Shown: positions 8,814-54,119 of the stretch, piece by piece
Position numbering within the stretch: position 1 is the stretch's first letter
How the letters are laid out: every line of letters starts with the position of its first letter
DNA from: Planctomycetota bacterium
Lineage (GTDB): Bacteria > Planctomycetota > UBA1135
Assembly (NCBI GenBank): GCA_004295085.1
Contig: SHNF01000009.1
Location: 496,001 to 560,000, forward strand
DNA length: 64,000 nucleotides
Direction: 5' to 3'
Notes under the pieces: model-generated
What the model was told of the DNA's origin: nothing
Seen by the model: the letters and a program-made list of their open reading frames with translations, nothing else
The model's database searches: none
Position numbers and translations under genes: made by a program

Positions 8814-8819
8814 GGCGCC

Positions 8820-10839: not shown

Positions 10840-10873
10840 GCCTCGCGCGAAAGGGGCTTTGGGGTCGCGTTCG

Positions 10874-12373: not shown

Positions 12374-12402
12374 CGCCGTCTGCGTCCACGCAGAAGCCGT
12401 GG

Positions 12403-12441: not shown

Positions 12442-12605
12442 CCGCATCTCTCCGCAGGCGCCGCGGCCGCGCGGCCGCCCTGCCGGCAACCGGCGCTCTG
12501 TCCCCGGACACTCCCCGGGAAATCCCGCGTTCCCCGCCGCCGCAAGGACCTGCCGGGAACGACCTAAGCCCCTGCGCTCGTTGTAGTTACCAAGGCCGGC
12601 ATGGC

Positions 12606-12634
12606 TTTTTCCACACTCCGACGGCGCCTATACT
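12606..12634 (+). promoter_or_regulatory. dnaN promoter with overlapping DnaA box
   Basis: -10 box TATACT at 12629-12634, with TTTTTC at 12606-12611 at a 17-nt spacing as a weak -35. The sequence TTTTCCACA (12607-12615) fits the relaxed DnaA box TTWTNCACA and covers the -35, so DnaA could repress dnaN and the downstream genes when abundant. The regulatory effect is inference. Confidence 0.6.
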
Positions 12635-12686
12635 CTGATGACTGATTCGTTCCATGTCGGAAATACTCACCAAGAACGCCAGCGCC

Positions 12687-13827
12687 ATGAAATTCCTCAT
12701 TGACCGTCCCGCCTTCCGGGACGCGCTCCAGAGGGTGGAGATGGCCGTGGACCGCAAGCCGACCCGGCCGGTGCTGGGCGGGATCCTGATCCGCGCGGAA
12801 CGGGATTCCGTGGTCGTGGAAGCCACCGACCTGGAGATCGCCGTGCGTTACCGCATCGAGGCGGTGCAGGTGGACGCGGAAGGCTGGGCCATCGTGCCCG
12901 GCCGCGAACTGGTGGAAGTGGTGCGCGACCTGGACGCTGAAACCGTCAGCGCCTTCCTCAACGAGCAGCGGCAGTTCGAGATGGAGGCCGGCGAGGATCG
13001 CTGCACCCTCGTCACCATGGAGTCCTCGGCAGATCCCGATCCCGGCGGTGCGCCCCGCAAGAAGAGCCAGCAGTTCCCCGAGATCCCGGAACTGGGCGCG
13101 GAGCCGGACGTGGTCCTGGACAAGGCCACCTTCCTGCAGATGGTGGCGAGCACGCGTTTCGCGGTGTCGCGCGTCCACGACAGCCGCTTCCCGACAGAGG
13201 GGATCCTGTTCGAGGTCAAGGACGGGGCCGTGACCATGGTCGGCACGGACGGCCGCCGCCTGGCCTGCGTGCGCCGCCCCGCGCAGGGCGCCGCCTCCCA
13301 GCAGCGCTCGGTGCTGCTGCCCAAGGTGCTCGACCAGATCGCGCGCTTCGGCCAGGAGGAGCCGGCTACGGCCCTCGAAGCCTTCTTCCTGGGCAACCAG
13401 GTCGGCTTCCGCGTGGGCCGCCTGGAGTCGTTCGGGCGCGTCCTGGAGGGCGAGTACCCCAACTACGACAGCGTCATCCCCAAGGGTGGCAAGCACGTCC
13501 TGCGCGCGCAGCGCGAGCAGCTGAGCAAGAAGCTGCGCCTGGCCAGCCATCTCACCACGGACGCCGCCGCCGTGGTGCGGCTGCAGGTCGCGCCGGACAC
13601 GATGGAGATCTCCGCCGAGCACGAGGGCCGCGGCCGCGCCGCCGCCACCCTGGAAGTGGAGTACGAAGGCCCCGGCTTCACCACGCTGTTCAATCCCATC
13701 TTCCTGCTGGAAGGGCTCAAGGCGGCCCACGGCGAGGGCGTCGAGCTGCAGATGGAGGATCCCGCGCGTCCGGCTCGATTCCGGCTGGGCGAGGACTACA
13801 CCTACGTGGTGATGCCGCTGACCACCT

Positions 13828-13835
<8 letters not shown>
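12687..13835 (+). CDS. dnaN: DNA polymerase III beta sliding clamp
   Basis: 382 residues from the ATG at 12687, which gives the family-typical start MKFLIDRPAF; an in-frame ATG at 12654 adds 11 residues. Three beta-clamp domains are recognisable: RPVLGGILIRAERDSVVVEATDLEIAV in domain 1, FAVSRVHDSRFPTEGILFEV and VGTDGRRLA in domain 2, and FNPIFLLEGLKA plus the C-terminal YTYVVMPLT in domain 3. It tethers polymerase III to DNA. A short acidic/basic insert (ESSADPDPGGAPRKKS) lies between domains 1 and 2. Its stop overlaps the possible TTG start of the DUF721 gene. Confidence 0.95.
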
Positions 13836-16607
<2,772 letters not shown>

Positions 16608-26376: not shown

Positions 26377-29300
26377 TCACGGTTGCGCGTCCAGGTCGGC
26401 GCGCAGGTCCATGGCGCGCTGCGCCCAGGCGTCCGCCGCTGCCGCGGTGGCGGCGGCAGCGCTGGCCCCGGTGAAGATGGCGGCCAGGCGCGAGGACAGC
26501 GGCTTGCGTTCCACGAGGAGCGTGAGCGCGCGCTCCGCGTGCTCGACGGCGCGTTCGGGATGGCCGTCCGCCAGTTCCAGCTCCGCCGCCGTGACCAGGG
26601 CGACGGCCAGGCGCTGGCGATAGCCCGGGGTTTCCGGCGCCGCGGCCAGGCGCGCCTCCTGGGCGGCCAGCGCGCGTGGCACCAGCACGCGCGCGGGCTC
26701 CAGCTCCCCGGCGCCGATGAGCAAGGCCGCGAGCTCGGCGTCGACGTGGCCGCGCAGGCTGGAATAGTCGGCGCGCCTGGCTGTCTCCGGCGGCAGCCCG
26801 TCCAGGGCCGCAGCGGCGCGCTCGTAGGTGACCTGCGCCTCCTGGGTCCGGCCGCCTTCCGCGAACCAGGCACCGAGGGCGACCAGGGTGGTCGCCAGCT
26901 CGCCGGGGAGGTAGGCCATCGCCGGCATCTTCTGGATCAGGGATTCGAAGGCGGCGACCGAGCATTGCAGGGCCGCCTCGGCCTCTTCGCGGCGCCCCAG
27001 CACGCTGCGCGCGCGGCCCAGGCTGCGCCACTGGCGCGCCAGGTAGTAGTGCGTCTCGAGATCCTGCGGCTGCGCGGTGGCCACGCGCTCCAGGATCGCC
27101 ACTGCCGCTGCCAGGGCGGATTCCGCCTCCTGCAGCCGCCCTTGCGCCTCGTGCAGGCGCGCCAGCTCCGCGTGGGCCTGCCCGAGGTTGCTCTGGAACC
27201 TGTGGTTGGCCGGGAAGTCGGCCGCCAGGTCCTGTTGCAGCTCCACGGCGCGCGCCAGCGCCGGCTGCGCCTCGTCGTAGCGGCCGGCGGTGACGAGGAC
27301 CCCACCCAGAAGCCGGCAGGCGTCGCCCAGCTCCAGCCGGGCGCGCGGGAAGTAAGGGAGACGGGCGCTGGCCTCGTCCAGGATCTCGATCGCGCTCCGG
27401 TATGCGTCCGCCGCTTCCGGCCAGCGGCCTTGCAGGCGGTGCGCATCGCCGAGCTTGCTCCAGGCGATGCCGTGGCTGACGTGCAGCACGGGCGGCAGGG
27501 CGCCGGCCTGCGCGTCCTCGAACAAGGCGATGCAGGCGCGGCTGAACTCCTCCGAGGCGGCGCTCCCTTGCTGCGTGAGCCGCAGGGCCGCCAGGCTCAG
27601 GTAGACCTCGGCCAGCACGCCGCGGGCGTCGGCGTCCTCGGGGTCGGCCGCCAGCCGCGGCTGCAGGAGGTCGCGCGCGAGCTGCAGCTGCTGCGCTCCC
27701 GGTTCGACCTGCCCGCGGCTGATCAGCAGCGAGGCATAGGCGGAGTGCGTCCTGGCGAGCTGGGCCACCGAGGCGGGATCCGTGCCCGCCAGCCCGGCGA
27801 GGAGGACGAGCGCGCGGTCGAAGTGGTCCTGCGCCTGCTCCGGATCGCTCTGGTGCACGGCCAGGCCGGCGTGGGCGGCCGCGAGGCGGTTGCTGGCCCA
27901 CGCCTCGCGCCGGGGAAGCCGCTCGAACAGCGCGATGGCTTCCTGGTAGTTGTGGACCGCCGCCGCGCGGTCTCCGAGCGTGACCTGGACCTGCGCGGCC
28001 CGCAGGTGCGCCGCCGCCGTCTGGGCGGACGCTTCCGGGCGCGCGCCCTCCTCCTGCAGGAAGGACAGGTGGAACCCGAGCGCGTCCTCGAGCAGGCGGC
28101 GGCGCACCGGATCCAGCCGTGGATCATGGCTGAGGTCCTCCTGCGCCGCGGCCGTGAGCCGCTCCACCGCCTCCACGGCGGTCCTGTAGCCGGCCTCCGC
28201 GCGCTCGAACTGCGCCTGCACGCGGGCGCGCGCCTGCTGCTGCTGCCATCCGAACGCCAGCGGCCCTCCGATCAGCAGGACGGCGGCCAGCGCGGCGGCC
28301 GCGGCGCGCGGGGGGTTGCGCTGCACCCAGCGCTGGGCGCGCCGCAGCGGACCCGGACGCCGCGCGTTGATCGGCCGGCGCTCGAGCACGTTGCTCAGGT
28401 CCCGGGCCAAGTCGGCGGCGGTCGCGTACCGGCCGGCCGGGTCGTAGTCCATGGCCTTGCCGCACACGGCCTCGGCCTCGCGCGAGATGCCGGGGTGGAT
28501 CCGGCGCAAGGGCTGTGGGCGGCCGGCCAGGATGCGCTGCCGCGTGATCTCCGCCGTCTCGCCCAGGAACGGCGAGCGCTGCGCCAGGAGCTCGTGCAAG
28601 GTCACGCCCAGCGCGTAGACGTCGACCGCGGGGCCGGCCTCGCCGGCGTCGCCGCGCAGCTGCTCGGGGGCCATGTACGGCAGCGAGCCGAGCGGCGAGC
28701 TGGTGCGCGTCAGCTTCTGCGCATCGGCAAGCCCGGCCAGGCCGAAATCGAGCACCAGCAGGCGGCCGGCGGGCGTCACGATCAGGTTGGACGGCTTGAT
28801 GTCGCGGTGCACCACGCCGCGGCGGTGGGCGTGGTCGAGCGCCTCGGCCGCGTCGCGCGCCATCTGCAGGCAGGCGCGCTCCCATGCCGGAGAGAACGTG
28901 GCCTGCTGCGCGCGCCGCTCCGCCAGCAGCTCGGCGAGCGTGCGCCCTTCGATCAGCTCCATGGCGATGTAGCTGATCCCGCCGGCCTCGCCGTATCCAT
29001 AGACCGCGACGATGCCGGGGTGCTGCAGGCGCGCGGCCGCCTCGGCCTCGCGGCGGAAGCGCTCGGCGCTGCCGGGGGAGAACACCTGCTCGGCGCGCAG
29101 GATCTTCAGCGCGACGCGCCGGCGCAGGGACTCCTGTTCGGCCTCGTACACCACGCCCATCCCGCCGCCGCCGAGCCGGCGCAGCAGGCGGAAGTCCCCG
29201 AGCCGCGCGGGCACGTCCAACGCCGGCGCGCCGAGCATGCCCATGGCGCGCAGCGACTCGGTCCGCCGGCGGATCGCGTCCGCCAGCTCCGGGTGGCGGG

Positions 29301-29409
29301 CACAGGCCTCCGCCAGCGCCGCGGCCTCGCCCACCGCGTCGCGCCGTTCCAGGAACTCGGCGACGACGCGGCGGAGCGTGGCACGGGGATCGTCAGGAGC
29401 GGCGCTCAC
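26377..29409 (-). CDS. Transmembrane Ser/Thr protein kinase with TPR repeats
   Basis: 1010 residues from a GTG at 29409. The N-terminal ~65 residues are a helical leader. The kinase domain (about 68-330) has LGGGGMGVVYEAEQ, VALKILR, HRDIKPSN, VLDFGLAG and GSLPYMAPEQ, all catalytic residues present. A transmembrane helix lies near 365-385 (AAAAALAAVLLIGGPLAFGW). The long C-terminal part (about 400-1000) is a superhelix of TPR-like repeats (GDRAAAVHNYQEAIALFERL, LGDAHRLQGRWPEAADAYRS and similar). It probably senses or scaffolds partners outside the membrane. It follows an FG-GAP gene on the same strand with a hairpin between them, so it may have its own promoter. Confidence 0.92.
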   Translation of the reverse strand: MSAAPDDPRATLRRVVAEFLERRDAVGEAAALAEACARHPELADAIRRRTESLRAMGMLGAPALDVPARLGDFRLLRRLGGGGMGVVYEAEQESLRRRVALKILRAEQVFSPGSAERFRREAEAAARLQHPGIVAVYGYGEAGGISYIAMELIEGRTLAELLAERRAQQATFSPAWERACLQMARDAAEALDHAHRRGVVHRDIKPSNLIVTPAGRLLVLDFGLAGLADAQKLTRTSSPLGSLPYMAPEQLRGDAGEAGPAVDVYALGVTLHELLAQRSPFLGETAEITRQRILAGRPQPLRRIHPGISREAEAVCGKAMDYDPAGRYATAADLARDLSNVLERRPINARRPGPLRRAQRWVQRNPPRAAAAALAAVLLIGGPLAFGWQQQQARARVQAQFERAEAGYRTAVEAVERLTAAAQEDLSHDPRLDPVRRRLLEDALGFHLSFLQEEGARPEASAQTAAAHLRAAQVQVTLGDRAAAVHNYQEAIALFERLPRREAWASNRLAAAHAGLAVHQSDPEQAQDHFDRALVLLAGLAGTDPASVAQLARTHSAYASLLISRGQVEPGAQQLQLARDLLQPRLAADPEDADARGVLAEVYLSLAALRLTQQGSAASEEFSRACIALFEDAQAGALPPVLHVSHGIAWSKLGDAHRLQGRWPEAADAYRSAIEILDEASARLPYFPRARLELGDACRLLGGVLVTAGRYDEAQPALARAVELQQDLAADFPANHRFQSNLGQAHAELARLHEAQGRLQEAESALAAAVAILERVATAQPQDLETHYYLARQWRSLGRARSVLGRREEAEAALQCSVAAFESLIQKMPAMAYLPGELATTLVALGAWFAEGGRTQEAQVTYERAAAALDGLPPETARRADYSSLRGHVDAELAALLIGAGELEPARVLVPRALAAQEARLAAAPETPGYRQRLAVALVTAAELELADGHPERAVEHAERALTLLVERKPLSSRLAAIFTGASAAAATAAAADAWAQRAMDLRADLDAQP

Positions 29410-29516
29410 GAGGATTGCAAGGCATCAACCTACAGGATTCCGTGGGCCAGGCGGCGGTGGTGCTGCATGGCCGCTCTCATCGACAGCGACGCTGGAGGGT
29501 TTCCGGAAAGCAGGAC

Positions 29517-29544
29517 GCAGCCGGCGCAGTCGCGCGCCGGCTGC
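29517..29544 (-). terminator. GCAGCCGG-type terminator after FG-GAP gene A
   Basis: Perfect 11-bp stem GCAGCCGGCGC / GCGCCGGCTGC with a 6-nt loop, 20 bp after the stop at 29564; followed on the minus strand by a short CTTT. One of three related hairpins in the FG-GAP array. Confidence 0.6.
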
Positions 29545-29563: not shown

Positions 29564-31051
29564 TCAGTTGCTCAGGGCGGCTCCGAAAGCGGCCCCTCCC
29601 CCCGGGGTGGCCTGGTGCCAGACGTCATGCCCGGCGCTGCCCGCAGGTCCGTAGAACACCTCCACCTCGCCGGCCTGCTGGGTCGCACCGATGTCTTCGT
29701 TCGGCGTACCAACAGCGAGGTCGTCCTGGCCGTCGCCGTCGAAGTCGCCGGCGGCCAGTGCCGCGCCGAAGCGGTCGTTCTGCCCGACATCGCTGCCGAT
29801 GCCCGGGAGCAGGTTGTATTCGGAGCCGTTCCAGAGCCCGCCAACATGCCCGCGCGCGACTTGCACCGCGCCGGCCAGCACGTTGCCCACGGTCTCGTAC
29901 GGCGAGCCGACGGCCAGGTCGTCGTAGCCGTCGCCGTCGAAGTCGCCGCTGGCCACCGCGAGCCCGGTGCGGTCGCCGGCTTCGGCCACGCCTTGCAGGC
30001 CGCTGCCCTGGATGAGGATCTCGTTGCCGGCGCTGCTGAGGCCGGCGGCGGAGCCGTAGATCACGTTCACCGCGCCGGCGTTGACGACGCCGCTGTCCAG
30101 GTCCTCGGAAGGCGCGCTGGCCGCGAGGTCGTCGTAGGAGTCGCCGTCGAAGTCGCCGGCGGCCAGCGCCGTCCCGAACGCGCCGTAGGCCTCGGCGGAA
30201 TCCAGGATGCCCGGCATGTTCTGGTGCCAGAGCTGCGTGGACCCAGGCTGCAGGCCTTGGCTGGAGCCGTACAGGACCTGCACCAGGCCGGCGTCGATGA
30301 GGCTGCCGACATCCTCGAGCGGCGTGCCGATCGCGATGTCCGCGTAGCCGTCGGCGTTGAAGTGGCCGGCGGCCAGCGCCGAGCCGAAGCCATCCCCCCA
30401 CTCGACCGTCTGCCCGGGCGAGGCCTGGGCCTGGTTCCATACGACGTCGCCGGAGGTGCTCAAGCCGCCGGGGCTGCCGTACATCACGTGCACTCGTCCG
30501 GCGTCGATCTCCCCGTACACCGTGGCTCCCGGCATGCCGATGACCAGGTCGTCGTAGCCGCCGGCGGCGCCATTGAAGTTGCCGGCTGCCAGGGATGCGC
30601 CGTAATGGGCGCTGTATCCCAGGTCTCCCGCCATGCCGGGATCGTCGAGCCGCAGCAGCTGGTCGCCGGTGGCGCTCAGCCCGTTTGCGGAGCCGTACAG
30701 GACGTGCACGATTCCCGCAAGGATGTATTCATCCACCGTCTCGTTGGGCACGCCGATGGCGAGGTCGTCGTAGTCGTCGCCGTTGAAATCGCCCCAGGCC
30801 AGGGCCGCTCCGAAGTTGTCGTTCTGCTCGGCGACGCCCTGGATTCCCGGGACGTCCTGGTGCCAGTAGTCCGCGCCGGCGGCCGTGAGGCCGCTCGCGC
30901 TGCCGTACAGCACCGTCACCGAGCCGGCCCACTGCACGCCGTCCACGGTATCGTCAGGAGCGCCGATCGCGAGGTCGGCGTAGCCGTCGTTGTTGAAGTC
31001 CTGCGCCTCCGGGGCTGCGAACAGGGGTAAGAAGAGGAGGATGTTGTGCAT
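29564..31051 (-). CDS. Secreted FG-GAP beta-propeller protein A
   Basis: 495 residues. A very short signal peptide with no Lys or Arg (MHNILLFLPLFAAPEAQ) precedes DFNNDGYADLAIGAP, the first FG-GAP/integrin-alpha-type repeat. About seven repeats follow, each with a Ca-binding loop such as DFNGDDYDDLAIG, DFDGDGYDDLAVG or DFDGDGQDDLAVG and a strand like 'AG.V.VLYGSA.GL...G...W.QD.PGI', consistent with a seven-bladed propeller. It is probably secreted or surface-exposed and binds ligands or other proteins in a calcium-dependent way; the ligand is unknown. First of five paralogues that share an upstream element and signal-peptide style. Confidence 0.9.
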   Translation of the reverse strand: MHNILLFLPLFAAPEAQDFNNDGYADLAIGAPDDTVDGVQWAGSVTVLYGSASGLTAAGADYWHQDVPGIQGVAEQNDNFGAALAWGDFNGDDYDDLAIGVPNETVDEYILAGIVHVLYGSANGLSATGDQLLRLDDPGMAGDLGYSAHYGASLAAGNFNGAAGGYDDLVIGMPGATVYGEIDAGRVHVMYGSPGGLSTSGDVVWNQAQASPGQTVEWGDGFGSALAAGHFNADGYADIAIGTPLEDVGSLIDAGLVQVLYGSSQGLQPGSTQLWHQNMPGILDSAEAYGAFGTALAAGDFDGDSYDDLAASAPSEDLDSGVVNAGAVNVIYGSAAGLSSAGNEILIQGSGLQGVAEAGDRTGLAVASGDFDGDGYDDLAVGSPYETVGNVLAGAVQVARGHVGGLWNGSEYNLLPGIGSDVGQNDRFGAALAAGDFDGDGQDDLAVGTPNEDIGATQQAGEVEVFYGPAGSAGHDVWHQATPGGGAAFGAALSN

Positions 31052-31060: not shown

Positions 31061-31086
31061 GATCGACGCGCGCCGGCCATCGTCAC
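31061..31086 (-). promoter_or_regulatory. Shared two-box element upstream of FG-GAP gene A
   Basis: Minus strand reads GTGAC, 13 nt, CGTCGATC, then 9 nt to the ATG. It matches the same layout at four other FG-GAP genes. Box positions suit an ECF-type -35/-10 with a leaderless start, though 13 nt is shorter than the usual AAC-to-CGT spacing. Confidence 0.55.
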
Positions 31087-31143
31087 GCGATTCTTCCGTC
31101 GGGCCGGCCGGGCGCTATCTTGGGCAGCTCCAGCCTGAGAAGC

Positions 31144-31647
31144 ATGGACGGCAGCACCCTCCAGCGCGCGGACGCCGGCGATCCGGCCGCGGCCGCCGCC
31201 CTTCTGGCGCAGCACCTGACCGGGCTGCACGCCTTTGTCCGCCTGCGCATGGGTCCGCCGCTGCGCCGGCGCGAGGACAGCGGCGACCTGGTGCAGTCGG
31301 TGTGCGCCGAGATCCTGGGCAACCTGAGCCGCTACCAGCACCCGGGCGAGCGCCAGTTCCGCCAGTGGCTGTTCAAGACCGCCGAACGCAAGATCGCGGA
31401 CCACTGGAAGCACCAGCAGCGCCTCAAGCGGGACCCGGCGCGCGAGGAGCTGGAGCGCGCCGAGGCCGCCTTCGACAAGCTGGCGGAGGACGAGCGCGAG
31501 GTGATCCTGCTCGCGAACGTGGTCGGGCTGAGCCGGGCCGAGATCGCGGCCCAGCTCGGCAAGAGCGAAGGCGCGGTGCGGACCATGCTGTCCCGCGCGC
31601 TGTCGCATCTGGCCGAGCTGGTCGAAGAGAGCGGAGAGCAGGCCTAG
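31144..31647 (+). CDS. ECF sigma factor, copy 1
   Basis: 167 residues from the ATG at 31144; an earlier ATG at 31120 would add 8. Region 2 is DLVQSVCAEILGNLSRYQ and QFRQWLFKTAERKIADHW; region 4 is EDEREVILLANVVGLSRAE and IAAQLGKSEGAVRTMLSRAL. The linker between them is only a few residues: compared with copy 2 at 33215, a 29-codon stretch is missing, otherwise the two are almost identical over their full length. The last bases CTAG form the stop of this gene and, on the other strand, of FG-GAP gene B. It is divergent from FG-GAP gene A, 92 bp apart. Confidence 0.9.
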   Translation: MDGSTLQRADAGDPAAAAALLAQHLTGLHAFVRLRMGPPLRRREDSGDLVQSVCAEILGNLSRYQHPGERQFRQWLFKTAERKIADHWKHQQRLKRDPAREELERAEAAFDKLAEDEREVILLANVVGLSRAEIAAQLGKSEGAVRTMLSRALSHLAELVEESGEQA

Positions 31648-33170
31648 CGGCCCAGCGACCAGCCGAAGAAGTCGCCGTGCTCCGACAGGTCCGGGATGCC
31701 GGCCACGTTCTGGTGCCAGTAGTCCGAGCTGGCCGACGGGATGCCGGCGTAGAACACGTGCACGACGCCCATCGCCGCGTAGGCCGTTCCCGGGTACGCG
31801 CCGAGGTACTCGCCGGGCGCGCCGATCGCCAGGTCGTCGTAGCCCGAGTCGTTGAAGTCGCCGACGGCCAGGGCCTGGCCGAACATGTCGAAGACCTCGG
31901 AAGTCTCCTGGACCGTGTCGTCCTGCGTCCAGTACGACTTCTCGAAGTTGGACAGCCCGTCGACGCTGCCCATGAACACGTGCACGGCGCCATGCAGGTC
32001 GTAGAACTCACCCGAGCCTTCGCCCGGCACGCCGATGGCGAGGTCCGCGTAGGCGTCGCCGTCGAAGTTGCCGGCCGCGAGCGCGGCGCCGAACTGGTCC
32101 TGCGACTCGGCGACGTCGTACACGCCGGGCACGTCCTCGTGCCAGTACTCGTCGTCGGCCACCCCCAGGCCGGCGGGCAGCCCGTAGAGCACGTGGACAG
32201 CGCCCGGGCTGGCGCTGCCGGCAATGAAGTCGTAGGGCACGCCGATGGCCAGGTCGTCGCGCCCATTGCCGTCGAAGTCGCCGGCGGCCAGCGCCGCGCC
32301 GAACTTCTCGATGTTGGTCGGGGCGCTGTCGATCCCGGGCACGTCCTGGTGCCAGAAGCTGGCGCCCACGCTGGTGAGCCCGACGATGCTGCTGCTGTAC
32401 ACGACGTGCACCGCGCCGGCGCTCGATCCAGCGCCGACGTCGGTGCCTGGAGCGCCGATCGCCAAGTCGGCGTGGCCGTTGCCGTCGAAGTCGGCCATCA
32501 CCAGGGTGCTGCCGAAGCCGGCGCCGGACTGGGCCGCCTGCCCGAACGTGGCGCGGCTCCACTTGCTGCTGTCCAGCGGCTGCAGGCCGGCAGCCGAGCC
32601 GGCGAGCACCCAGACACTGCCCACGTAGCCGGCTCCGCCCCAGTCCGCTCCCGGGATGCCGATCGCCAGCTCGTCGCAGCCATCCTCGTCGACGTCACCG
32701 GCGGCCAGCGCGGCGCCGAACTTGGCCATGCTCTGCAGCGCGCCCGGGGCCCCAGGGGTCTTCTGGGTCAGGTACTCCTGTCCGGTGGTGGTCAGGCCCA
32801 GCGCTCCGCCATAGAAGACTTGCACCAGGCCGGCTTCCGCCAGGCCGGCGATCGCCTCGCGCGGGCTGCCCACCGCCAGGTCGTCGAAGCCGTCGCCGTC
32901 GAAGTCGCCGTGCTGGAGCGCGAGGCCGAAGGAGTCGTTCTGCTCGGCCATGTCCCTGACCCCGGCGCTGTTCTGGCACAGGAACTGCGCGCCAGCGCTG
33001 CCGAGGCCGGACGGGCCGCCATACAGCACCTGGACCGCGCCGGACGCGGCAGCCCCGGAGATGTTCTCGCCGAAGACGCCGACCGCCAGGTCGGAGTATC
33101 CGTCGCCGTTGAAGTCCTGCGCCGACGGGGCGGCGAGCAGGGAGGGGAGCAGGAGGAGGAGCTCGTTCAT
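31644..33170 (-). CDS. Secreted FG-GAP beta-propeller protein B
   Basis: 508 residues: short Lys/Arg-free signal (MNELLLLLPSLLAAPSAQ), then DFNGDGYSDLAVGVF and about seven FG-GAP repeats (DFDGDGFDDLAVG, DVDEDGCDELAIG, DFDGNGHADLAIG, DFDGNGRDDLAIG, NFDGDAYADLAIG, DFNDSGYDDLAIG). The protein ends EHGDFFGWSLGR with part of a last blade closing on the first. Same probable role as protein A. Its stop shares the CTAG at 31644-31647 with the sigma gene converging on it. Confidence 0.9.
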   Translation of the reverse strand: MNELLLLLPSLLAAPSAQDFNGDGYSDLAVGVFGENISGAAASGAVQVLYGGPSGLGSAGAQFLCQNSAGVRDMAEQNDSFGLALQHGDFDGDGFDDLAVGSPREAIAGLAEAGLVQVFYGGALGLTTTGQEYLTQKTPGAPGALQSMAKFGAALAAGDVDEDGCDELAIGIPGADWGGAGYVGSVWVLAGSAAGLQPLDSSKWSRATFGQAAQSGAGFGSTLVMADFDGNGHADLAIGAPGTDVGAGSSAGAVHVVYSSSIVGLTSVGASFWHQDVPGIDSAPTNIEKFGAALAAGDFDGNGRDDLAIGVPYDFIAGSASPGAVHVLYGLPAGLGVADDEYWHEDVPGVYDVAESQDQFGAALAAGNFDGDAYADLAIGVPGEGSGEFYDLHGAVHVFMGSVDGLSNFEKSYWTQDDTVQETSEVFDMFGQALAVGDFNDSGYDDLAIGAPGEYLGAYPGTAYAAMGVVHVFYAGIPSASSDYWHQNVAGIPDLSEHGDFFGWSLGR

Positions 33171-33178
33171 GTCCCCCG

Positions 33179-33204
33179 GATCGCCGCCGCGGCGTCGGCG
33201 TTAC
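33179..33204 (-). promoter_or_regulatory. Shared two-box element upstream of FG-GAP gene B
   Basis: Minus strand reads GTAAC, 13 nt, CGGCGATC, then 8 nt to the ATG at 33170. One base differs from the CGTCGATC form in the other copies. Confidence 0.5.
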
Positions 33205-33214
33205 CGTATTTCTC

Positions 33215-33817
33215 GTGGCCGGCAGCCTCGTCGACCGTGCCGACGCCGGCGACCCGGCCGCGGCCGCCGCCCTTCTGGCGCAGCACCTGACCGGGCTGCA
33301 CGCCTTCATCCGCCTGCGCATGGGTCCGCCGCTGCGGCGGCGCGAGGACAGCGGCGACCTGGTGCAGTCGGTGTGCGCCGAGATCCTGGGCAACCTGAGC
33401 CGCTACCAGCACCCGGGCGAGCGCCAGTTCCGCCAGTGGCTGTTCAGGACCGCCGAGCGCAAGATCGCCGACCACTGGAAGCACCAGCGGCGCCTCAAGC
33501 GCGACCCGGCGCGCGAGGTGCGCCTCGCGGACTCGGAAGGGGGCCATGACCTGCAGCTCCTGGCGCAGTACCGCTCCTTCTGCTCGCCCAGCGGGCGCGT
33601 CGCGGCCCGGGAGGAGCTGGAGCGCGCCGAGGCCGGCTTCGACAAGCTGGCGGAGGACGAGCGCGAGGTGATCCTGCTCGCGAACGTGGTCGGGCTGAGC
33701 CGGGCCGAGATCGCGACCCAGCTCGGCAAGAGCGAGGGCGCGGTGCGGACCATGCTGTCCCGCGCGCTCTCGCATCTGGCCGAGCTGGTAGATGAGCCTT
33801 CTGGCGGTGCTGGCTAG
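33215..33817 (+). CDS. ECF sigma factor, copy 2
   Basis: 200 residues from a GTG at 33215. Sequence is nearly identical to copy 1 (31144) from RADAGDPAAAAALLAQHLTG onward, in DNA as well as protein, but it keeps a 29-residue linker (VRLADSEGGHDLQLLAQYRS, FCSPSGRVA) between regions 2 and 4. That linker length is normal for ECF factors, so copy 2 looks like the parental form. It ends in the CTAG shared with FG-GAP gene C. Divergent from FG-GAP gene B with 44 bp between the starts, so its promoter overlaps the two-box element there. Confidence 0.92.
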   Translation: MAGSLVDRADAGDPAAAAALLAQHLTGLHAFIRLRMGPPLRRREDSGDLVQSVCAEILGNLSRYQHPGERQFRQWLFRTAERKIADHWKHQRRLKRDPAREVRLADSEGGHDLQLLAQYRSFCSPSGRVAAREELERAEAGFDKLAEDEREVILLANVVGLSRAEIATQLGKSEGAVRTMLSRALSHLAELVDEPSGGAG

Positions 33818-35307
33818 CGCCCCAGCCCCATGCCGAAGTTGTCGTAGGATCCGTACTGGTACCAGAGCTGGTAGCCGCCGGTCGCCGGCGGGCCGTAGAA
33901 CACCTCCACGGAACCGTTGTTTGTGTAGCCGGCCACGTCTTCGAACATGGTCCCGACCACCACGTCGTCCAGGCCGTCGCCGTTGTAGTCGCCGATGCCC
34001 AGGGACCAGCCGAAGTAGTCGCCGCTCTCCGCCGCGCTGGCGGTGAACGGCAGGCCCTGCTGGAGGGTCAGACCGGAGCCGCCGAGCCCACCGGGGGCGC
34101 CGTAGGCCACCATCGCCTTGCCTGCAGAGTTCTTGCCGCTGATCGTTTCCAGCGGGCTGCCGATCACCACGTCGCCGTAGCCGTCGCCGTTGAAGTCGCC
34201 GGCGATCATGGAGGAGCTCCAGTAGCCGGTGTAGTCGCCCGTGGCCGCGGAGCCGGGCAGGCCGCTGCCCTGGTACAGGAACTCGTTGCCGGCCGCGTCG
34301 AGGCCGCCGGCCATGCCGTAGATGACCTGCATTCCGCCGGCATTGGTGAGGCCGTTGAAGTCCTCGAGCGGCACGCTGATCGCCAGATCGTCGATGAAGT
34401 CGTCGTCGAAGTCGCCCACGGCGACCGCGCGGCCGAAGCCGTCGCCGGCTTCGGCGATGCCGGAAATGCCGCCGATGTCCTGGTGCCAGATCTCGGCGCT
34501 GGCGCTGCTCAGGCCGGAGGCGGAGCCGTACACCACGTGCACGGTGCCGGCGGCGTTGATGTTCCCGATGTCCTCGCCCGGGACGCCGATGGCCAGGTCG
34601 TCGTAGGGGTCGGCGTTGAACTGCCCGCTGGCCAGCGCGAACCCGAACTCGTCGTACGCCTCGACCAGCTGTCCCGCCCCCGCTGCCGCCTGGTTCCAGA
34701 GCACGTCGTCGGTGGTGCGCAGGCCGTTGGGACTGCCGTACAGGATGTGCACCTGGCCGGCGTTGGTCTTGCCGTTCACGTCGCTGTCCGGCATGCCGAC
34801 CGCGAGGTCGTCGCGACCATCGGCGTTGAAGTCCCCGGACGCGAGCACGCTGCCGTAGAAGTCGCCGGCCTGGCTGTTGCCGGCCACGCCCGGAGCATTC
34901 AGGAAGTACAGGGCGTCGTCGAGTCCGGTGAGTCCGCCTGGAGACCCGTAGAGCACCTGCACCACTCCGGCGTTCGCCAGCCCGTCGACCGTGGTGCCGG
35001 GAACCCCGATGGCGAGGTCATCGAAGCCGTCGCCGTCGAAGTCGCCGTGGGCCAGGGCGCGGCCGAAGTTCTCATTCGTCGCCGCGCCGCCCTCGATGCC
35101 GGGCACGTTCTGGTGGTAGGCGAAGCTGCCGGCAGTGCTCAGCCAGTCGCCGTTGCTGTACAGCACGACCACCGAGCCGGCGCCGGACAAGCCGCTGACA
35201 GTCTCCCCCGGAGTGCCGATCGCGAGGTCGTCGTAGCCGTCGCCGTTGAAGTCCTGCGGTGCCGGAGCGGCCAGCAGGGTGGGCAAGAGGAGGAGGATGT
35301 GGTGCAT
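33814..35307 (-). CDS. Secreted FG-GAP beta-propeller protein C
   Basis: 497 residues from the ATG at 35307 (MHHILLLLPTLLAAPAPQ); a TTG at 35340 would add MRRPCRVDPDA but would lie inside the shared upstream element, so it is rejected. Repeats include DFNGDGYDDLAIGTP, DFDGDGFDDLAIG, DFNADGRDDLAVG, QFNADPYDDLAIG, DFDDDFIDDLAIS, DFNGDGYGDVVIG and DYNGDGLDDVVVG: seven Ca-binding blades. C-terminus GYQLWYQYGSYDNFGMGLGR. Secreted surface protein of unknown ligand, paralogue of A, B, D and E. Confidence 0.9.
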   Translation of the reverse strand: MHHILLLLPTLLAAPAPQDFNGDGYDDLAIGTPGETVSGLSGAGSVVVLYSNGDWLSTAGSFAYHQNVPGIEGGAATNENFGRALAHGDFDGDGFDDLAIGVPGTTVDGLANAGVVQVLYGSPGGLTGLDDALYFLNAPGVAGNSQAGDFYGSVLASGDFNADGRDDLAVGMPDSDVNGKTNAGQVHILYGSPNGLRTTDDVLWNQAAAGAGQLVEAYDEFGFALASGQFNADPYDDLAIGVPGEDIGNINAAGTVHVVYGSASGLSSASAEIWHQDIGGISGIAEAGDGFGRAVAVGDFDDDFIDDLAISVPLEDFNGLTNAGGMQVIYGMAGGLDAAGNEFLYQGSGLPGSAATGDYTGYWSSSMIAGDFNGDGYGDVVIGSPLETISGKNSAGKAMVAYGAPGGLGGSGLTLQQGLPFTASAAESGDYFGWSLGIGDYNGDGLDDVVVGTMFEDVAGYTNNGSVEVFYGPPATGGYQLWYQYGSYDNFGMGLGR

Positions 35308-35315
35308 GGCATCCG

Positions 35316-35341
35316 GATCGACGCGGCAGGGCCGGCGCAAC
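35316..35341 (-). promoter_or_regulatory. Shared two-box element upstream of FG-GAP gene C
   Basis: Minus strand reads GTTGC, 13 nt, CGTCGATC, then 8 nt to the ATG at 35307. The first box is the most divergent of the five. Confidence 0.45.
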
Positions 35342-35351
35342 AGAAAACGCG

Positions 35352-35379
35352 ACGCAGCCGGCCCCCAGGCCGGCTGCGT
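35352..35379 (-). terminator. GCAGCCGG-type terminator after FG-GAP gene D
   Basis: Perfect 12-bp stem ACGCAGCCGGCC / GGCCGGCTGCGT with a 4-nt loop, followed on the minus strand by CGCGTTTTC. Good Rho-independent terminator 27 bp after the stop at 35406, directly upstream of gene C's promoter element. Confidence 0.8.
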
Positions 35380-35405
35380 GCGCCCGCGGAGCGGGAAGGT
35401 CTCGT

Positions 35406-36902
35406 TCAGCGGCTAAGGGCCGCGCCGAAGCGGTCGAGCTCCTCCGCAGAGCTGGCGATGCCGGGGCTGTTCTGGTGCAGGTACTCGGAGCCGCCCGAGG
35501 CGAAGCCGGCATAGAGCACGTGCACGACGCCGACGTTGTGGATGTTGAAGTCCTCGCCGCTCGCGCCCACCACGAGGTCGTCCAGCCCCGAGGCGTTGTA
35601 GTCGCCGACCGTGAGCGCGCTGCCGAAGACGTCGCCCTGTTCGCGCACCTGGGCCACGGTGTCGTCCTGGGTCCAGAAACGCTGGCCGGCGCTGGACAGG
35701 CCGTTCGCGCCGCCCATCAGGATGTGCACGGCGCCGACGCTGGTGCTGGCGCCGTCGAACTCGCCCGGAACGCCGATGGCGAGGTCGCCATAACCGTCGC
35801 CGTCGAAGTCCCCGATCGCGAGCGTTTCGCCGAAGCTGTTGTGCGTCTGCGCGACCTCGCTCACGCCGGCGGAGTCCTGGTGCCAGCGCTGGTCGCCCGT
35901 GGCGCTCAGTCCGAGTGCGCCGCCGTAGAGCACGTTGACCGCTCCGGCCCAGTCCTTGCCGTTCACCTCGTCCTCGGGCACGCCGATGGCGAGGTCGCAG
36001 AAGCCGTCGCCGTCCAGGTCGCCGGCGGCCAGGGACTCGCCGAAGAAGTCGTAGCTCCAGGCGGAGCCCTCGACGCCGGCCACGTCCTGGTGCCAGAGGT
36101 CGTCGCCGGCCGCGCTCAGTCCGGCGAGGCCGCCGTACAGGACGTGCACCGCTCCGGCTTCGAAATGGAGTCCCACGTTCGCGCCGCTGGCGCCGATCGC
36201 CAGGTCCGCGAAGCCGTCGCCGTCGAAGTCGCCCATGACCAGGGCGCCGCCGAACAGCGCGTCCTGCTGGTCGGGGAAGCCGAGGCTGCCGCGCGTCCAC
36301 AGGCTGCTGGCCTGGGGGTTCAGGCCACTGATCGTGCCCTCGAGCACGACCACGCGGCCGCTGTTATTCTCGCTGCCGAGGTCCGCCATCGGGACGCCGA
36401 TGGCCAGCTCGTCGTCACCGTCGCCGTCGACGTCGCCGGCCGCGAGCGTCAGGCCGAACTCCCCGCCGTACTCCGGGGCCAGGTTCAGGCCGTAGGTGCT
36501 CGGCGTGAGCGCCTGCTGGCCCAGGGTCGTGATCCCGGCCGCGCTGCCGTAAAAGACCTGCACCATGCCGGTGTTGGGGGAGACGCCGTTCTCGAACGGC
36601 ACGCCCACGGCCAGGTCGTCGAAGCCGTCGCCGTTGAAGTCGCCGTGGACCAGCACCTTGCCGAACTGGTCGCCTGCCTCGGTCGCGTCCGCGATGCCTG
36701 CGGAGCCCTGGTACAGGTACTGCGAGCCGGTCCCGTCGATGCCCCAGAGGCCGCCGTAGAGCACGTGGACTGCCCCGGCCGAGCCCGCCCCGCCGACGGT
36801 CTCGCCGGGGACGCCGATCGCGAGGTCCGGGTAGCCGTCGCCGTTGAAGTCCTGCGGTGCCGGAGCGGCCAGGAGAGGTAAGAAGAGGAGGATGTGCTGC
36901 AT
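35406..36902 (-). CDS. Secreted FG-GAP beta-propeller protein D
   Basis: 498 residues: signal MQHILLFLPLLAAPAPQ, then DFNGDGYPDLAIGVP and repeats DFNGDGFDDLAVG, DVDGDGDDELAIG, DFDGDGFADLAIG, DLDGDGFCDLAIG, DFDGDGYGDLAIG and DYNASGLDDLVVG. Structure and inferred role as in the other paralogues. Similarity to gene E is high in repeat order, including the WTQDDTVAQV segment near the C-terminus (WTQDDT also in B and E), suggesting B, D and E are a closer subgroup than A and C. Confidence 0.9.
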   Translation of the reverse strand: MQHILLFLPLLAAPAPQDFNGDGYPDLAIGVPGETVGGAGSAGAVHVLYGGLWGIDGTGSQYLYQGSAGIADATEAGDQFGKVLVHGDFNGDGFDDLAVGVPFENGVSPNTGMVQVFYGSAAGITTLGQQALTPSTYGLNLAPEYGGEFGLTLAAGDVDGDGDDELAIGVPMADLGSENNSGRVVVLEGTISGLNPQASSLWTRGSLGFPDQQDALFGGALVMGDFDGDGFADLAIGASGANVGLHFEAGAVHVLYGGLAGLSAAGDDLWHQDVAGVEGSAWSYDFFGESLAAGDLDGDGFCDLAIGVPEDEVNGKDWAGAVNVLYGGALGLSATGDQRWHQDSAGVSEVAQTHNSFGETLAIGDFDGDGYGDLAIGVPGEFDGASTSVGAVHILMGGANGLSSAGQRFWTQDDTVAQVREQGDVFGSALTVGDYNASGLDDLVVGASGEDFNIHNVGVVHVLYAGFASGGSEYLHQNSPGIASSAEELDRFGAALSR

Positions 36903-36911
36903 GCCCTCCCA

Positions 36912-36937
36912 GATCGACGTGCCCGGCGCGGCGTCAC
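36912..36937 (-). promoter_or_regulatory. Shared two-box element upstream of FG-GAP gene D
   Basis: Minus strand reads GTGAC, 13 nt, CGTCGATC, then 9 nt to the ATG at 36902. Confidence 0.55.
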
Positions 36938-36949
36938 TCGAAAACGAGG

Positions 36950-36979
36950 CGCAGCCGGCGCCCTCCGACGCCGGCTGCG
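36950..36979 (-). terminator. GCAGCCGG-type terminator after FG-GAP gene E
   Basis: Perfect 11-bp stem CGCAGCCGGCG / CGCCGGCTGCG with an 8-nt loop, followed on the minus strand by CCTCGTTTTCG. It lies 19 bp past the stop at 36999 and immediately before gene D's promoter element. Confidence 0.78.
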
Positions 36980-36998
36980 GGCAGAAGCTCGCGGCCGC

Positions 36999-38498
36999 TC
37001 AGCGGAGCAGGCTCGATCCGAAGGAGTCGTAGGGCTCGGTCGTGTCGGCGAGCCCCGCGGTGTCCTGGTACAGGTAGTCGGCGCCGGTCGCCGAGCCGCC
37101 GTAGAACACGTGCACGATGCCCACGGAGACCGCGCTGCCCCAGCTCTCGCCGGGCGCCCCGATGACCAGGTCGTCGTAACCCGAGGCGTTGTAGTCGCCG
37201 ACCGCCAGGCTGGCGCCGAAGCGGTCGTACTCCTCCGGGGACGAGGCGGTCGTGTCGTCCTGGGTCCAGAACACTTCGTTCAACCCTGACAGGCCCGTGG
37301 CGTCGCCGTAGAAGACGTGTACCGCGCCGGTGTACACGAGCGCGCCGAAGTACTCGCCCGACACGCCCACCGCCAGGTCCTCGGCGCCGTCGCCGTCGAA
37401 GTCGGCGATGGCGATGGCCGCGCCGAAGCGCTCGTCGGCGAGGGCGTTGCTCTCGACGTTCGCCACGTCCTGGTGCAGGATCTGGTTGCCGCCCGAGCCG
37501 AGGCCGAGGATGCTGCCGTAGAACACGTTCACGGCGCCGGCGGCGGCCTCGCTGCCGACGTCCTCGTACTGCACGCCGACCGCGAGGTCGTCCACGTCAT
37601 CGCCGTCCAGGTCGCCCGCGGCCAGGGCGCCGCCGAAGCGGTCGCCCGCCTCCAGCGCGCCCTCCACGCCGGCGACCCCCTGATGCCAGAGGTCGGTGTT
37701 GGCGCTGGACAGGCCGCTGGCCGTGCCGTACATCACCTGCACCAGGCCGGCGTTGAGCGATCCCGAGACCGTCGCCTCCGGCGCGCCGATGGCCAGGTCT
37801 GCATAGCCGTCGTCGTCGAAGTCCCCGGACGCCAGCGCGGCGCCGAAGTTGTCGTTCGCCCCGGCGGTGGCGCCGAGCTCGTTGCGGTTCCACAGCTCGC
37901 CGTTGACCACGTCGAGCCCGGTGACGGAACCGGGCAGCACGCACACCCGGCCGGCGTTGCTCGCGCTCTGGACGTCGAAGTACGGCGCGCCGACCGCGAG
38001 GTCGGCGAAGCCGTCGCCGTCGAAGTCGCCCGCGGCCAGCGACCAGCCGAAGCGCTCGCCGTTCTGGGGCGTGCCGGGCATGCCGGGCGTGTCCAGGGTG
38101 AGCTTCTGCTGGCCGAGGTGGGTCAGCCCGGCGCCGGTGCCGAAGAACACCTGCACCATGCCGGCGTCGATCGCGCCGCCGAAGTCCTCGGAGGGCGCGC
38201 TCACGGCCAGGTCGTCGTAGCCGTCGCCGTTGAAGTCGCCGTATGCGAGCGCCTGGCCGAACTGGTCCAGCGAGTCCGCGGCCTCCTTGACGCCGGGGGC
38301 GTCCTGGTGCAGGTACTGCGAGCCGGCGGTACCGACGCCGGCCCCGGAGCCGTACAGGACGTGGACGACCCCGGCGCCCGAGATCGCGCCGAGGTCCTCG
38401 GCCTGCACCCCGATCGCCAGGTCCGCGAAGCCGTCGCCGTCGAAGTCCTGGGCCGCCGGGGCTGCCAGGAGGGAAAAGAGGAGGAAGGAGTGATGCAT
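36999..38498 (-). CDS. Secreted FG-GAP beta-propeller protein E
   Basis: 499 residues from the ATG at 38498 (MHHSFLLFSLLAAPAAQ, no Lys or Arg); a GTG three codons upstream is possible. Repeats: DFDGDGFADLAIGVQ, DFNGDGYDDLAVS, DFDGDGFADLAVG, DFDDDGYADLAIG, DLDGDDVDDLAVG, DFDGDGAEDLAVG, DYNASGYDDLVIG. Seven blades with calcium loops. First gene transcribed in the D/E tail of the array and upstream of the SIR2-like gene's end. Ligand unknown. Confidence 0.9.
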   Translation of the reverse strand: MHHSFLLFSLLAAPAAQDFDGDGFADLAIGVQAEDLGAISGAGVVHVLYGSGAGVGTAGSQYLHQDAPGVKEAADSLDQFGQALAYGDFNGDGYDDLAVSAPSEDFGGAIDAGMVQVFFGTGAGLTHLGQQKLTLDTPGMPGTPQNGERFGWSLAAGDFDGDGFADLAVGAPYFDVQSASNAGRVCVLPGSVTGLDVVNGELWNRNELGATAGANDNFGAALASGDFDDDGYADLAIGAPEATVSGSLNAGLVQVMYGTASGLSSANTDLWHQGVAGVEGALEAGDRFGGALAAGDLDGDDVDDLAVGVQYEDVGSEAAAGAVNVFYGSILGLGSGGNQILHQDVANVESNALADERFGAAIAIADFDGDGAEDLAVGVSGEYFGALVYTGAVHVFYGDATGLSGLNEVFWTQDDTTASSPEEYDRFGASLAVGDYNASGYDDLVIGAPGESWGSAVSVGIVHVFYGGSATGADYLYQDTAGLADTTEPYDSFGSSLLR

Positions 38499-38506
38499 GG
38501 CACCCA

Positions 38507-38532
38507 CATCGACGGGCGCAGGGCGGCGTTAC
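38507..38532 (-). promoter_or_regulatory. Shared two-box element upstream of FG-GAP gene E
   Basis: Minus strand reads GTAAC, 13 nt, CGTCGATG, then 8 nt to the ATG at 38498. Confidence 0.55.
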
Positions 38533-38552: not shown

Positions 38553-39755
38553 TCAGACGTGCGCGGCGGCCAGGCGCGTCGCGATGGCCTCGCGGAGGTC
38601 CGCGCCGGCCCGCGTGAAGTCGCAGGCCAGGAAATTGCGCTGTTCGTCCATGCCCGGGCCGAGGACGCTGCGATAGTTGGCGAGCAGCTCCGGGCTCAGA
38701 TGCTTGTTCACCACCAGGCAGCGCAGCCGCCGGCGCGCGTGGCTCTGAATGGCCGCGCGCAAGGCCGCGCGAGTCAGGTAGTCGTCGATGGGCAGCGAAT
38801 AACCCAGGAAGACGAACTCGTGGGCCTCGCGGCACGCGCGGATGACGTCCTGCCAGATCAGCTTCTGCTCCAGGAACTGATACTGCTTGGCGAAGGTCGG
38901 CGGCGTGATGACCGGCGGGCACACCAGCGTGTACGCGCGCCGGTGCTCGAGATCCACGGGGAAGCCGATCTCTTCGTAGGCGAGAACGCGGCGCTGAAAG
39001 CGCGGAACCCGGCTGTCTCCCGAGGCGATGAAGTACGTCGAGGCGTTGCCGATGCCCTTGGCCACGTCGTACCAGCCCACGGAGCCGTGCGGCTTCAGCA
39101 CCAGGAAGGCGGGCGGCCCCCACGGCGTCCGGTAGGTGTAGTGCACCTCCGCGCCACTGTGATGCTCCATGCTGAGGAAGTAATCCACTTCCTCGTCCCA
39201 GTTGAAGCTGACCACCGCGTCGCGGTCGGGCGCCAGGCCTTCGAGCACGGAGCGCACCCCGCGCGGCAGGCGCCGGTTTTTCTGGCAGCGCTCGGTGAAC
39301 ACGGTGCGCACCACCGCCGCGACGTCATCGAACACCTGCGCCACGCCGTGGCCGCCCGAAGTGGAGAGCTGCACGAGCTCCCGCTCCTCGTGCCCTTCCT
39401 CGCCCACCAGCTCCGGCATCTGCGCCAGCATGTGGGCGATGGAGAAGAACTCGGTGACGCTGAGCTCCTCCAGGGAGTCGCGGTCGCAGGCACAGTACTT
39501 GTCCAGCACCAGGTCGATGGAGCGCAGGATCCGCTGCGGCTGCATGTAGCGGTCGCGCAGACGCTGCCCGCGCTTGCGGGTGGCGCGCCGGGCCGCGCGC
39601 CGCTCCAGGTACTCGATCACCAGCGGGACCAGCTCCCCGCCGAGCGGGTACTTCATGCCGGCGGAGAACCCGGCTCCGAACAGGAACACACGCGGGAAGA
39701 GGCTCTTGGATCCGGAGGCGGAAGTCACGGGCATGCAGGACGGTGACTGGCTCAT
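38553..39755 (-). CDS. SIR2-like domain protein
   Basis: 400 residues; start at 39755 or at the Met seven residues later. The N-terminus VFLFGAGFSAGMKYPLGGEL is the NAD-binding GAGxS motif of SIR2-like proteins. Later motifs agree: AVVSFNWDEEVDYFLS (position of 'T.NYD.LIE'), LVLKPHGSVGW (the 'KLHGS' strand), and FVFLGYSLPIDDYLTRAALR ('GYS..D'). It lacks the zinc cysteines of true sirtuins. Such proteins are common as NADase effectors of antiphage systems but also occur with other roles. No partner (TIR, Argonaute, HerA) is adjacent, so the function is open. It sits just upstream of the FG-GAP array on the same strand with its own start region. Confidence 0.8.
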   Translation of the reverse strand: MSQSPSCMPVTSASGSKSLFPRVFLFGAGFSAGMKYPLGGELVPLVIEYLERRAARRATRKRGQRLRDRYMQPQRILRSIDLVLDKYCACDRDSLEELSVTEFFSIAHMLAQMPELVGEEGHEERELVQLSTSGGHGVAQVFDDVAAVVRTVFTERCQKNRRLPRGVRSVLEGLAPDRDAVVSFNWDEEVDYFLSMEHHSGAEVHYTYRTPWGPPAFLVLKPHGSVGWYDVAKGIGNASTYFIASGDSRVPRFQRRVLAYEEIGFPVDLEHRRAYTLVCPPVITPPTFAKQYQFLEQKLIWQDVIRACREAHEFVFLGYSLPIDDYLTRAALRAAIQSHARRRLRCLVVNKHLSPELLANYRSVLGPGMDEQRNFLACDFTRAGADLREAIATRLAAAHV

Positions 39756-53422: not shown

Positions 53423-53464
53423 CCGGGCGGTAAGCTGGATCCAGGATAGCTCAAGGTCGGAACA

Positions 53465-54082
53465 GTGCCCGACGAGTCCGGCGAGCTCGTGACGCGCGCT
53501 TCCGCGGGAGACAGCTCCGTCCTGCCGGAGCTGGTGCGCCGCTATCTGCCCGGCCTGCGCCGCTACGTCCGGCATCACGCCGGCGGCCTGATTTTGCGCC
53601 GCGAGGCGAGCGAGGACCTGGTCCAGTCGGCCTGCCGGGAGATGCTGGAGCGGCTCGCGGACGAGCGCTACCAGTTCCAGGGCGAGGCGCAGTTCCGCCA
53701 GTGGCTGTACCAGGCCGCGCTGTTCAAGATCCAGGACCGCCGGCGCTATCACGGCGCGCAGCGGCGCGACCCGGACCGCGAGGCCCGGCGCCCCCAGCTC
53801 AGCTCCGCGGAGGCGCTCAGCTCGGTCCTGTTCCACGACGCCGGCACGCCGAGCGAGGCGGCGGCGCGCCGGGAACGCATCGTTCGCCTGCAGGCGGCGC
53901 TCGAGCAGCTGCCGGAAAGGTACCGGACCGTCCTCGATCTCGCTTACCGCGACGAGCTCCCGCACGAGGAGATCGCCGCGCGCCTCGACATCACACCCCA
54001 GAACTCGCGCGTGCTGCTGTCCCGCGCCCTGTCGCGCCTGGCACGGCTGGGCGTGGAACAAGAGGAAGGAGGCCCGGACTGA
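53465..54082 (+). CDS. ECF sigma factor
   Basis: 205 residues from a GTG at 53465. Region 2: LVRRYLPGLRRYVRHHAG, SEDLVQSACREMLERLAD, AQFRQWLYQAALFKIQDRRR. Linker of about 45 residues. Region 4: LQAALEQLPERYRTVLDLAY and HEEIAARLDITPQNSRVLLS. Same DLVQS-type group as the copies at 31144 and 33215 but clearly divergent. Paired head-to-head with the kinase-TPR gene. Its stop lies in the loop of a hairpin (54068-54096). Confidence 0.9.
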   Translation: MPDESGELVTRASAGDSSVLPELVRRYLPGLRRYVRHHAGGLILRREASEDLVQSACREMLERLADERYQFQGEAQFRQWLYQAALFKIQDRRRYHGAQRRDPDREARRPQLSSAEALSSVLFHDAGTPSEAAARRERIVRLQAALEQLPERYRTVLDLAYRDELPHEEIAARLDITPQNSRVLLSRALSRLARLGVEQEEGGPD

Positions 54083-54096
54083 AGGTCCGGGCCTCC
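54068..54096. terminator. Hairpin spanning the ECF sigma stop codon
   Basis: Perfect 12-bp stem GGAGGCCCGGAC / GTCCGGGCCTCC with the 5-nt loop TGAAG that contains the sigma stop codon. Between convergent genes, so it may terminate from both sides; no U-tract follows. Confidence 0.6.
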
Positions 54097-54119
54097 ATTC
54101 CGCGGTCCCGGCCGACGGC

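What the first reader, a model, noticed from the sequence alone, without database searches (positions are those of the whole stretch)
31061..38532. Five FG-GAP genes share an upstream two-box element with exactly 13-nt spacing
At 31061, 33179, 35316, 36912 and 38507 the minus strand reads GTNRC (mostly GTAAC/GTGAC), 13 nt, CG(T/G)CGAT, then 8-9 nt to the ATG. Spacing is identical in all five although the intervening bases differ. If the second box is a -10, transcription starts at the ATG and the messages are leaderless, which fits the lack of ribosome-binding sites. FG-GAP genes F and G lack it. The two ECF sigma genes inside the array are natural candidates to read it.
Basis: seen in the sequence. 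Interest (0 to 1): 0.8.

Follow-up and report, generated by a model that had tools for sequence, protein, structure and literature searches.

The report
Leaderless ECF-type promoters of FG-GAP array
Five neighbouring genes for FG-GAP (beta-propeller-type) proteins, plus a sixth relic copy, each carry the same small promoter-like switch right at the start of the gene, found nowhere else in this genome, and it looks like the kind of switch read by the specialised sigma factors encoded in the same cluster.

Summary
Five tandem FG-GAP genes carry GTNRC-N13-CG(T/G)CGAT; the gap to the ATG is 9-10 nt, not 8-9. A sixth copy (GAAAC-N13-TGTCGAT-N10-ATG, 29466-29503) lies at a relic gene start 58 nt before a Ser/Thr kinase gene. 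Genome-wide (4.1 Mb) the strict element plus ATG occurs exactly five times, all here; the relic is the only further site that fits. Shuffles never reach the observed conservation, although the paralogues are far diverged.

Best reading: an ECF-type promoter. Taking CGAT as the -10 core gives GTRAC-N16-CGAT, the spacing of known ECF promoters (BldN GTAAC-N16-CGTT). sigma-H numbering puts +1 one or two nt before the ATG, so the messages would be leaderless or nearly so. Leaderless starts are common in this genome (TANNNT ending 6-9 nt before starts, 29 versus 3.7 expected). Two divergent ECF genes and the STPK gene make a plausible dedicated circuit. ECF2 is the better reader, because ECF1 lacks 32 residues of the sigma2-sigma4 linker. 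The sigma-promoter pairing is inferred. There is no wide regulon, and other FG-GAP genes lack the element. This is a new member of a known kind.

The parts
31062..31086 (-). Element A: GTGAC (31082-31086), N13, CGTCGAT (31062-31068); 10 nt to ATG 31049-31051
33180..33204 (-). Element B: GTAAC, N13, CGGCGAT; 9 nt to ATG 33168-33170
35317..35341 (-). Element C: GTTGC, N13, CGTCGAT; 9 nt to ATG 35305-35307
36913..36937 (-). Element D: GTGAC, N13, CGTCGAT; 10 nt to ATG 36900-36902
38508..38532 (-). Element E: GTAAC, N13, CGTCGAT; 9 nt to ATG 38496-38498
29479..29503 (-). Element R, sixth copy: GAAAC, N13, TGTCGAT; 10 nt to ATG 29466-29468 of a relic 12-codon frame (MQHHRRLAHGIL*), about 58 nt upstream of the kinase GTG
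29564..31051 (-). FG-GAP gene A (495 aa)
   Evidence: Pfam PF01839 E=1e-55
31644..33170 (-). FG-GAP gene B (508 aa)
   Evidence: PF01839 E=4.5e-58
33814..35307 (-). FG-GAP gene C (497 aa)
   Evidence: PF01839 E=3.7e-58
35406..36902 (-). FG-GAP gene D (498 aa)
   Evidence: PF01839 E=2.6e-65
36999..38498 (-). FG-GAP gene E (499 aa)
   Evidence: PF01839 E=4.1e-62
31144..31647 (+). ECF1 sigma factor, divergent from A, stop overlaps the stop of B; lacks 32 residues of the sigma2-sigma4 linker
33215..33817 (+). ECF2 sigma factor, divergent from B, stop overlaps the stop of C; own start has TACCGT-N7-GTG (leaderless housekeeping-type)
26377..29409 (-). Ser/Thr protein kinase with TPR repeats, downstream of A and of element R
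   Evidence: PF00069 E=2.1e-43
35352..35379 (-). Terminator-like hairpin and T run between D and element C
36950..36979 (-). Terminator-like hairpin and T run between E and element D
29517..29544 (-). Hairpin GCAGCCGGCGC/GCGCCGGCTGC after gene A, before element R (same type, short T run)
   Evidence: read from sequence

Best explanation
Each FG-GAP gene of the array is a separate transcription unit started by the same ECF-type promoter: -35 GTRAC, 16 bp, -10 core CGAT (with G(T/G) just upstream, perhaps an extended -10). Start is at, or 1-2 nt before, the ATG, so the messages are leaderless or nearly so. The likeliest reader is ECF2 (or an ECF2/ECF1 pair), encoded divergently inside the array. 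ECF2 would be switched by phosphorylation of the Ser that replaces Ala in its DAED-type motif, by the neighbouring Ser/Thr kinase, so that a signal turns on the whole set of exported FG-GAP proteins together. Shown: the element, its conservation, its confinement to this locus, the spacing, the gene anatomy. Inferred: promoter activity, start site, sigma-promoter pairing, kinase control.
For: Six copies, invariant CGAT and flanking boxes, while paralogues share only 42-54% amino acids and 4-fold sites are near saturation. Exactly five strict hits with ATG in 4.1 Mb, plus R at 2 mismatches; the other 2-mismatch sites examined are inside genes or have no gene start behind them. Terminator hairpins stand just upstream of C, D and R, so transcription must restart there. 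GTRAC-N16-CGAT matches reported ECF layouts: BldN CGTAAC-N16-CGTTGA and SigW TGAAAC-N16/17-CGTA (PMC2375139), ECF41 TGTCACA-N16-CGTC (PMC3426412). sigma-H numbering G-11..T-9 (PMC6411747) puts +1 1-2 nt before the ATG. The genome's leaderless housekeeping -10 (TANNNT) ends 6-9 nt before starts, 29 versus 3.7 expected; the array's box lies 2-3 nt further out, as an ECF -10 ending at -9 rather than -7 should. ECF genes at 31144 and 33215; STPK at 26377; REDSGDLVQS in ECF1/2.
Against: The AAC triplet hallmark of ECF -35 boxes is met only in B, E and R (GTGAC in A and D, GTTGC in C). The -10 third base is A, not T, in CGAT. ECF1/2 are not preceded by the element, so there is no autoregulation through it. 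Other FG-GAP/ECF/kinase loci in the genome do not show it. No close relative with the array exists among 154 genomes of the order, so no phylogenetic footprint.
Confidence: 0.55

Rival explanations
1. The element is a real leaderless promoter, ECF-type or not, but is read by another sigma factor of the cell, not by ECF1/ECF2.
For: At least 20 ECF-family hits in the genome. ECF1 has lost its linker. The element does not precede either ECF gene.
Against: An element confined to this one locus argues for a local, dedicated reader, as for ECF41, whose neighbouring genes are its only detectable targets.
Confidence: 0.25
2. The shared upstream sequence is mainly left over from tandem duplication or gene conversion, with little function.
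For: The genes are tandem paralogues, and terminator plus element were duplicated as a unit before C, D and R. The spacer start GCCG is also shared by four copies. A second FG-GAP array (L070) shares a quite different upstream block.
Against: Flanking and spacer columns are near background (0.36 and 0.45 identity) while the boxes stay at 0.72 and 0.91. 4-fold sites show old divergence. Fisher P = 2.7e-5.
Confidence: 0.1
3. The element is the binding site of a transcription factor overlapping the start, or a translation-initiation signal, not a sigma recognition site.
For: It sits very close to the ATG; two conserved G columns follow box 2.
Against: No conserved RNA fold (alifold gives no structure) and no evident palindrome. 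The two-box layout with fixed spacing fits a sigma factor. No other promoter-like site lies between terminator and ATG; the sigma-70 scan finds none.
Confidence: 0.1

Closest known systems
ECF sigma promoters such as BldN (CGTAAC-N16-CGTTGA), SigW (TGAAAC-N16/17-CGTA)
   Same: GTAAC-type -35, 16-bp gap, CG-starting -10 core, rigid spacing
   Different: -10 core CGAT rather than CGT; some copies have GTGAC or GTTGC; extra conserved G(T/G) before CGAT; lies right at the ATG
ECF41 neighbour-only regulons (TGTCACA-N16-CGTC)
   Same: the element is found only next to the sigma genes
   Different: no C-terminal extension in ECF1/2; targets are FG-GAP genes; listed ECF41 target candidates have 5' leaders
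STPK-controlled ECFs (ECF43 EcfP/PknT; ECF59/60)
   Same: kinase gene nearby; Ser in the DAED-type motif (DSGD)
   Different: DSGD keeps two acidic residues; group assignment could not be run; kinase is not directly adjacent to the ECF genes
Leaderless TANNNT genes of high-GC bacteria
   Same: -10 box about 10 nt from the start codon, no Shine-Dalgarno sequence
   Different: different -10 sequence with a -35 box

Membership tests
ECF-type promoter | two boxes with rigid spacing of about 16-17 bp | tested here: met
   GTRAC-N16-CGAT in all six copies; with CGTC as core it would be 13, not met
ECF-type promoter | AAC in the -35 box | tested here: inconclusive
   AAC in B, E, R; GAC in A, D; TGC in C
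ECF-type promoter | CGT in the -10 box | tested here: inconclusive
   CGTC is present but at the wrong spacing; the correctly spaced core is CGAT
ECF-type promoter | transcription depends on an ECF sigma | not testable with these tools
   needs in vitro transcription or reporter
ECF sigma factor (ECF1, ECF2) | only sigma2 and sigma4 domains | tested here: met
   PF04542 and PF08281 in both; ECF1 lacks 32 residues of linker
STPK-regulated ECF (ECF43/59/60) | phosphorylatable residue replacing the DAED motif | tested here: inconclusive
   DSGD in ECF1/2, ESMD in two paralogues: Ser present, acidic ends retained
STPK-regulated ECF (ECF43/59/60) | kinase gene in the neighbourhood | tested here: met
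   kinase 26377-29409, next gene after A; kinase hit beside 14 of 29 ECF loci examined, nearly all from other genomes of the order
Leaderless gene | no Shine-Dalgarno sequence and a promoter -10 ending 6-10 nt before the start codon | tested here: met
Leaderless gene | mapped 5' end at the start codon | not testable with these tools
   no transcript data

The most novel reading that the evidence does not exclude
A kinase-switched ECF pair is dedicated to one array of exported FG-GAP proteins through six near-identical leaderless promoters, with one of the two sigmas (ECF1, linker deleted) acting as a damper. Each FG-GAP array in the genome would have its own private promoter code.
Probability: 0.2. 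Interest if true: 0.65.

Novelty: new member of a known kind. Interest (0 to 1): 0.42.

Why it matters
STPK-linked ECF sigmas with unknown targets recurred in the relatives searched here. A six-copy element tied to one such locus gives a concrete target promoter and a directly testable sigma-promoter-kinase circuit, and suggests what the FG-GAP arrays are regulated by. It also suggests that leaderless starts occur both at TANNNT and at an ECF-like -10 in one genome.

Tried and rejected
Wide regulon: rejected, no further gene start carries the element genome-wide. Housekeeping promoter variant: rejected, TANNNT is the housekeeping signal here and no -35 goes with it. RNA hairpin: no common fold. 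Footprinting in relatives: the order (154 genomes) has no ECF1 relative above about 56% identity and no FG-GAP gene beside such ECFs in the 3-kb loci looked at; the named-genome scan returned only 24-26% relatives. The five non-array CGTCGAT-N9-ATG sites lack the first box and do not look like gene starts, judged by eye. Literature: no paper on FG-GAP genes with sigma factors in planctomycetes in the library.

Full report
Check of the observation. The pattern GTNRC-N13-CGKCGAT has six hits in the window against 0.40 expected in shuffles. Five are the reported ones, directly in front of five tandem FG-GAP genes; the sixth (18680-18704) has no start codon behind it. Box 2 ends 9 nt (B, C, E) or 10 nt (A, D) before the ATG. 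For the five upstreams, 13 columns are invariant within 35 nt; 2000 dinucleotide shuffles gave at most 6. The genes are paralogues, so shared ancestry must be weighed. They share 42-54% amino acids and their 4-fold sites are 54-66% identical against 44-49% at saturation. The region upstream of the boxes is near background (0.36 pairwise identity) and the spacer only 0.45, while the boxes keep 0.72 and 0.91. Seven of 12 box columns are invariant in all six copies against 3 of 67 others (P = 2.7e-5). The spacer is not wholly free: four copies begin GCCG.

A sixth copy. At 29479-29503 the minus strand reads GAAAC-N13-TGTCGAT, 10 nt, then ATGCAGCACCAC, like the starts of the array genes, but the frame stops after 12 codons. 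It follows the hairpin at the end of gene A and lies about 58 nt before the GTG of the Ser/Thr kinase gene (29409). It is probably the promoter of a lost array member; whether it still serves the kinase is open, since the kinase also has a TANNNT (TAGGTT) 17 nt before its start.

Genome-wide. In the 4.1-Mb genome the strict element with N9/10 and ATG occurs five times, all in the array, and 150 relatives have 0 to 5 each, without pattern. Allowing mismatches, the array and the sixth copy come first. The remaining 2-mismatch sites that were examined lie inside genes or have no gene start behind them, and at 3 mismatches the counts are about those of the controls. Other FG-GAP genes of the genome lack it, including those beside other ECF genes. 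A second FG-GAP array (L070) shares a different upstream block that ends in a Shine-Dalgarno sequence, GGCAGGAG. So this is a local element.

What it is. Terminator-like hairpins with T runs stand just before elements C and D, and the same hairpin before R, so each gene must start its own transcript within the next few dozen bases. No sigma-70-type site was found in the region. ECF promoters need strict spacing (PMC6411747). If CGTC is taken as the -10, the gap is 13, too short. If the invariant CGAT is taken, the gap is 16, as in BldN CGTAAC-N16-CGTTGA and SigW TGAAAC-N16/17-CGTA (PMC2375139) and ECF41 TGTCACA-N16-CGTC (PMC3426412). With the numbering of the sigma-H structure (G-11, T-9) the start falls 1-2 nt before the ATG. 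Leaderless starts are common in this genome: TANNNT ends 6-9 nt before predicted starts 29 times against 3.7 expected, as described for other high-GC bacteria (PMC3160421). The array's box sits 2-3 nt further out than TANNNT does, as expected for an ECF -10.

Who reads it. ECF1 and ECF2 are on the plus strand, divergent from A and B, their stops overlapping the stops of B and C. They are 92% identical, but ECF1 lacks 32 residues between sigma2 and sigma4 that ECF2 and three paralogues keep, so ECF2 is the likelier active one. Both have DSGD where ECFs usually have DAED, and a Ser/Thr kinase gene lies downstream of A. STPK-regulated ECFs carry Ser or Thr there, charged by phosphorylation (review PMC8103513). 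Retained acidic residues make this less clear-cut here. Kinase, FG-GAP and ECF genes recur together at three other places in this genome (L068, L070, L074). In the order, kinase genes often flank such ECFs but FG-GAP genes do not. The sigma-promoter pairing is inference from locality.

Limits. No transcript data, no close relatives with the array, gene starts in the sampled 0.47 Mb are my own predictions, and the taxon is unnamed. The best NCBIfam match of the ECFs is TIGR02984, Planctomycetaceae-specific, below its cut-off, so Planctomycetota is likely but not shown.

Noticed in passing
window 31144-31647 versus 33215-33817: ECF1 is a near-copy of ECF2 with an in-frame loss of 32 residues between sigma2 and sigma4; it may be inactive or a damper.
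   Followed up: partly
window 29430-29468 (-): Relic start ATGCAGCACCAC... of a lost array member, a 12-codon frame ending 20 nt before the kinase GTG; could be a leader peptide.
   Followed up: partly
L070 (C6) 5536-15011: Second FG-GAP array next to an ECF and a kinase gene; genes share a different upstream block, TGATGNCCGGGCAGGAG, with a Shine-Dalgarno sequence.
   Followed up: partly
L074 3831-9411, L068 4504-9582, window 50540-55859: Recurrent module: Ser/Thr kinase, repeat protein gene (FG-GAP, or BNR in the window), convergent ECF sigma gene.
   Followed up: partly
window 38553-39755 (-): 400-aa protein upstream of gene E with weak SIR2 matches in PADLOC (E=4e-4) and no Pfam hit.
   Followed up: no
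window 33170-33230: The leaderless -10 of ECF2 (TACCGT) overlaps the -35 box of FG-GAP gene B on the other strand, so the two promoters may exclude each other.
   Followed up: no
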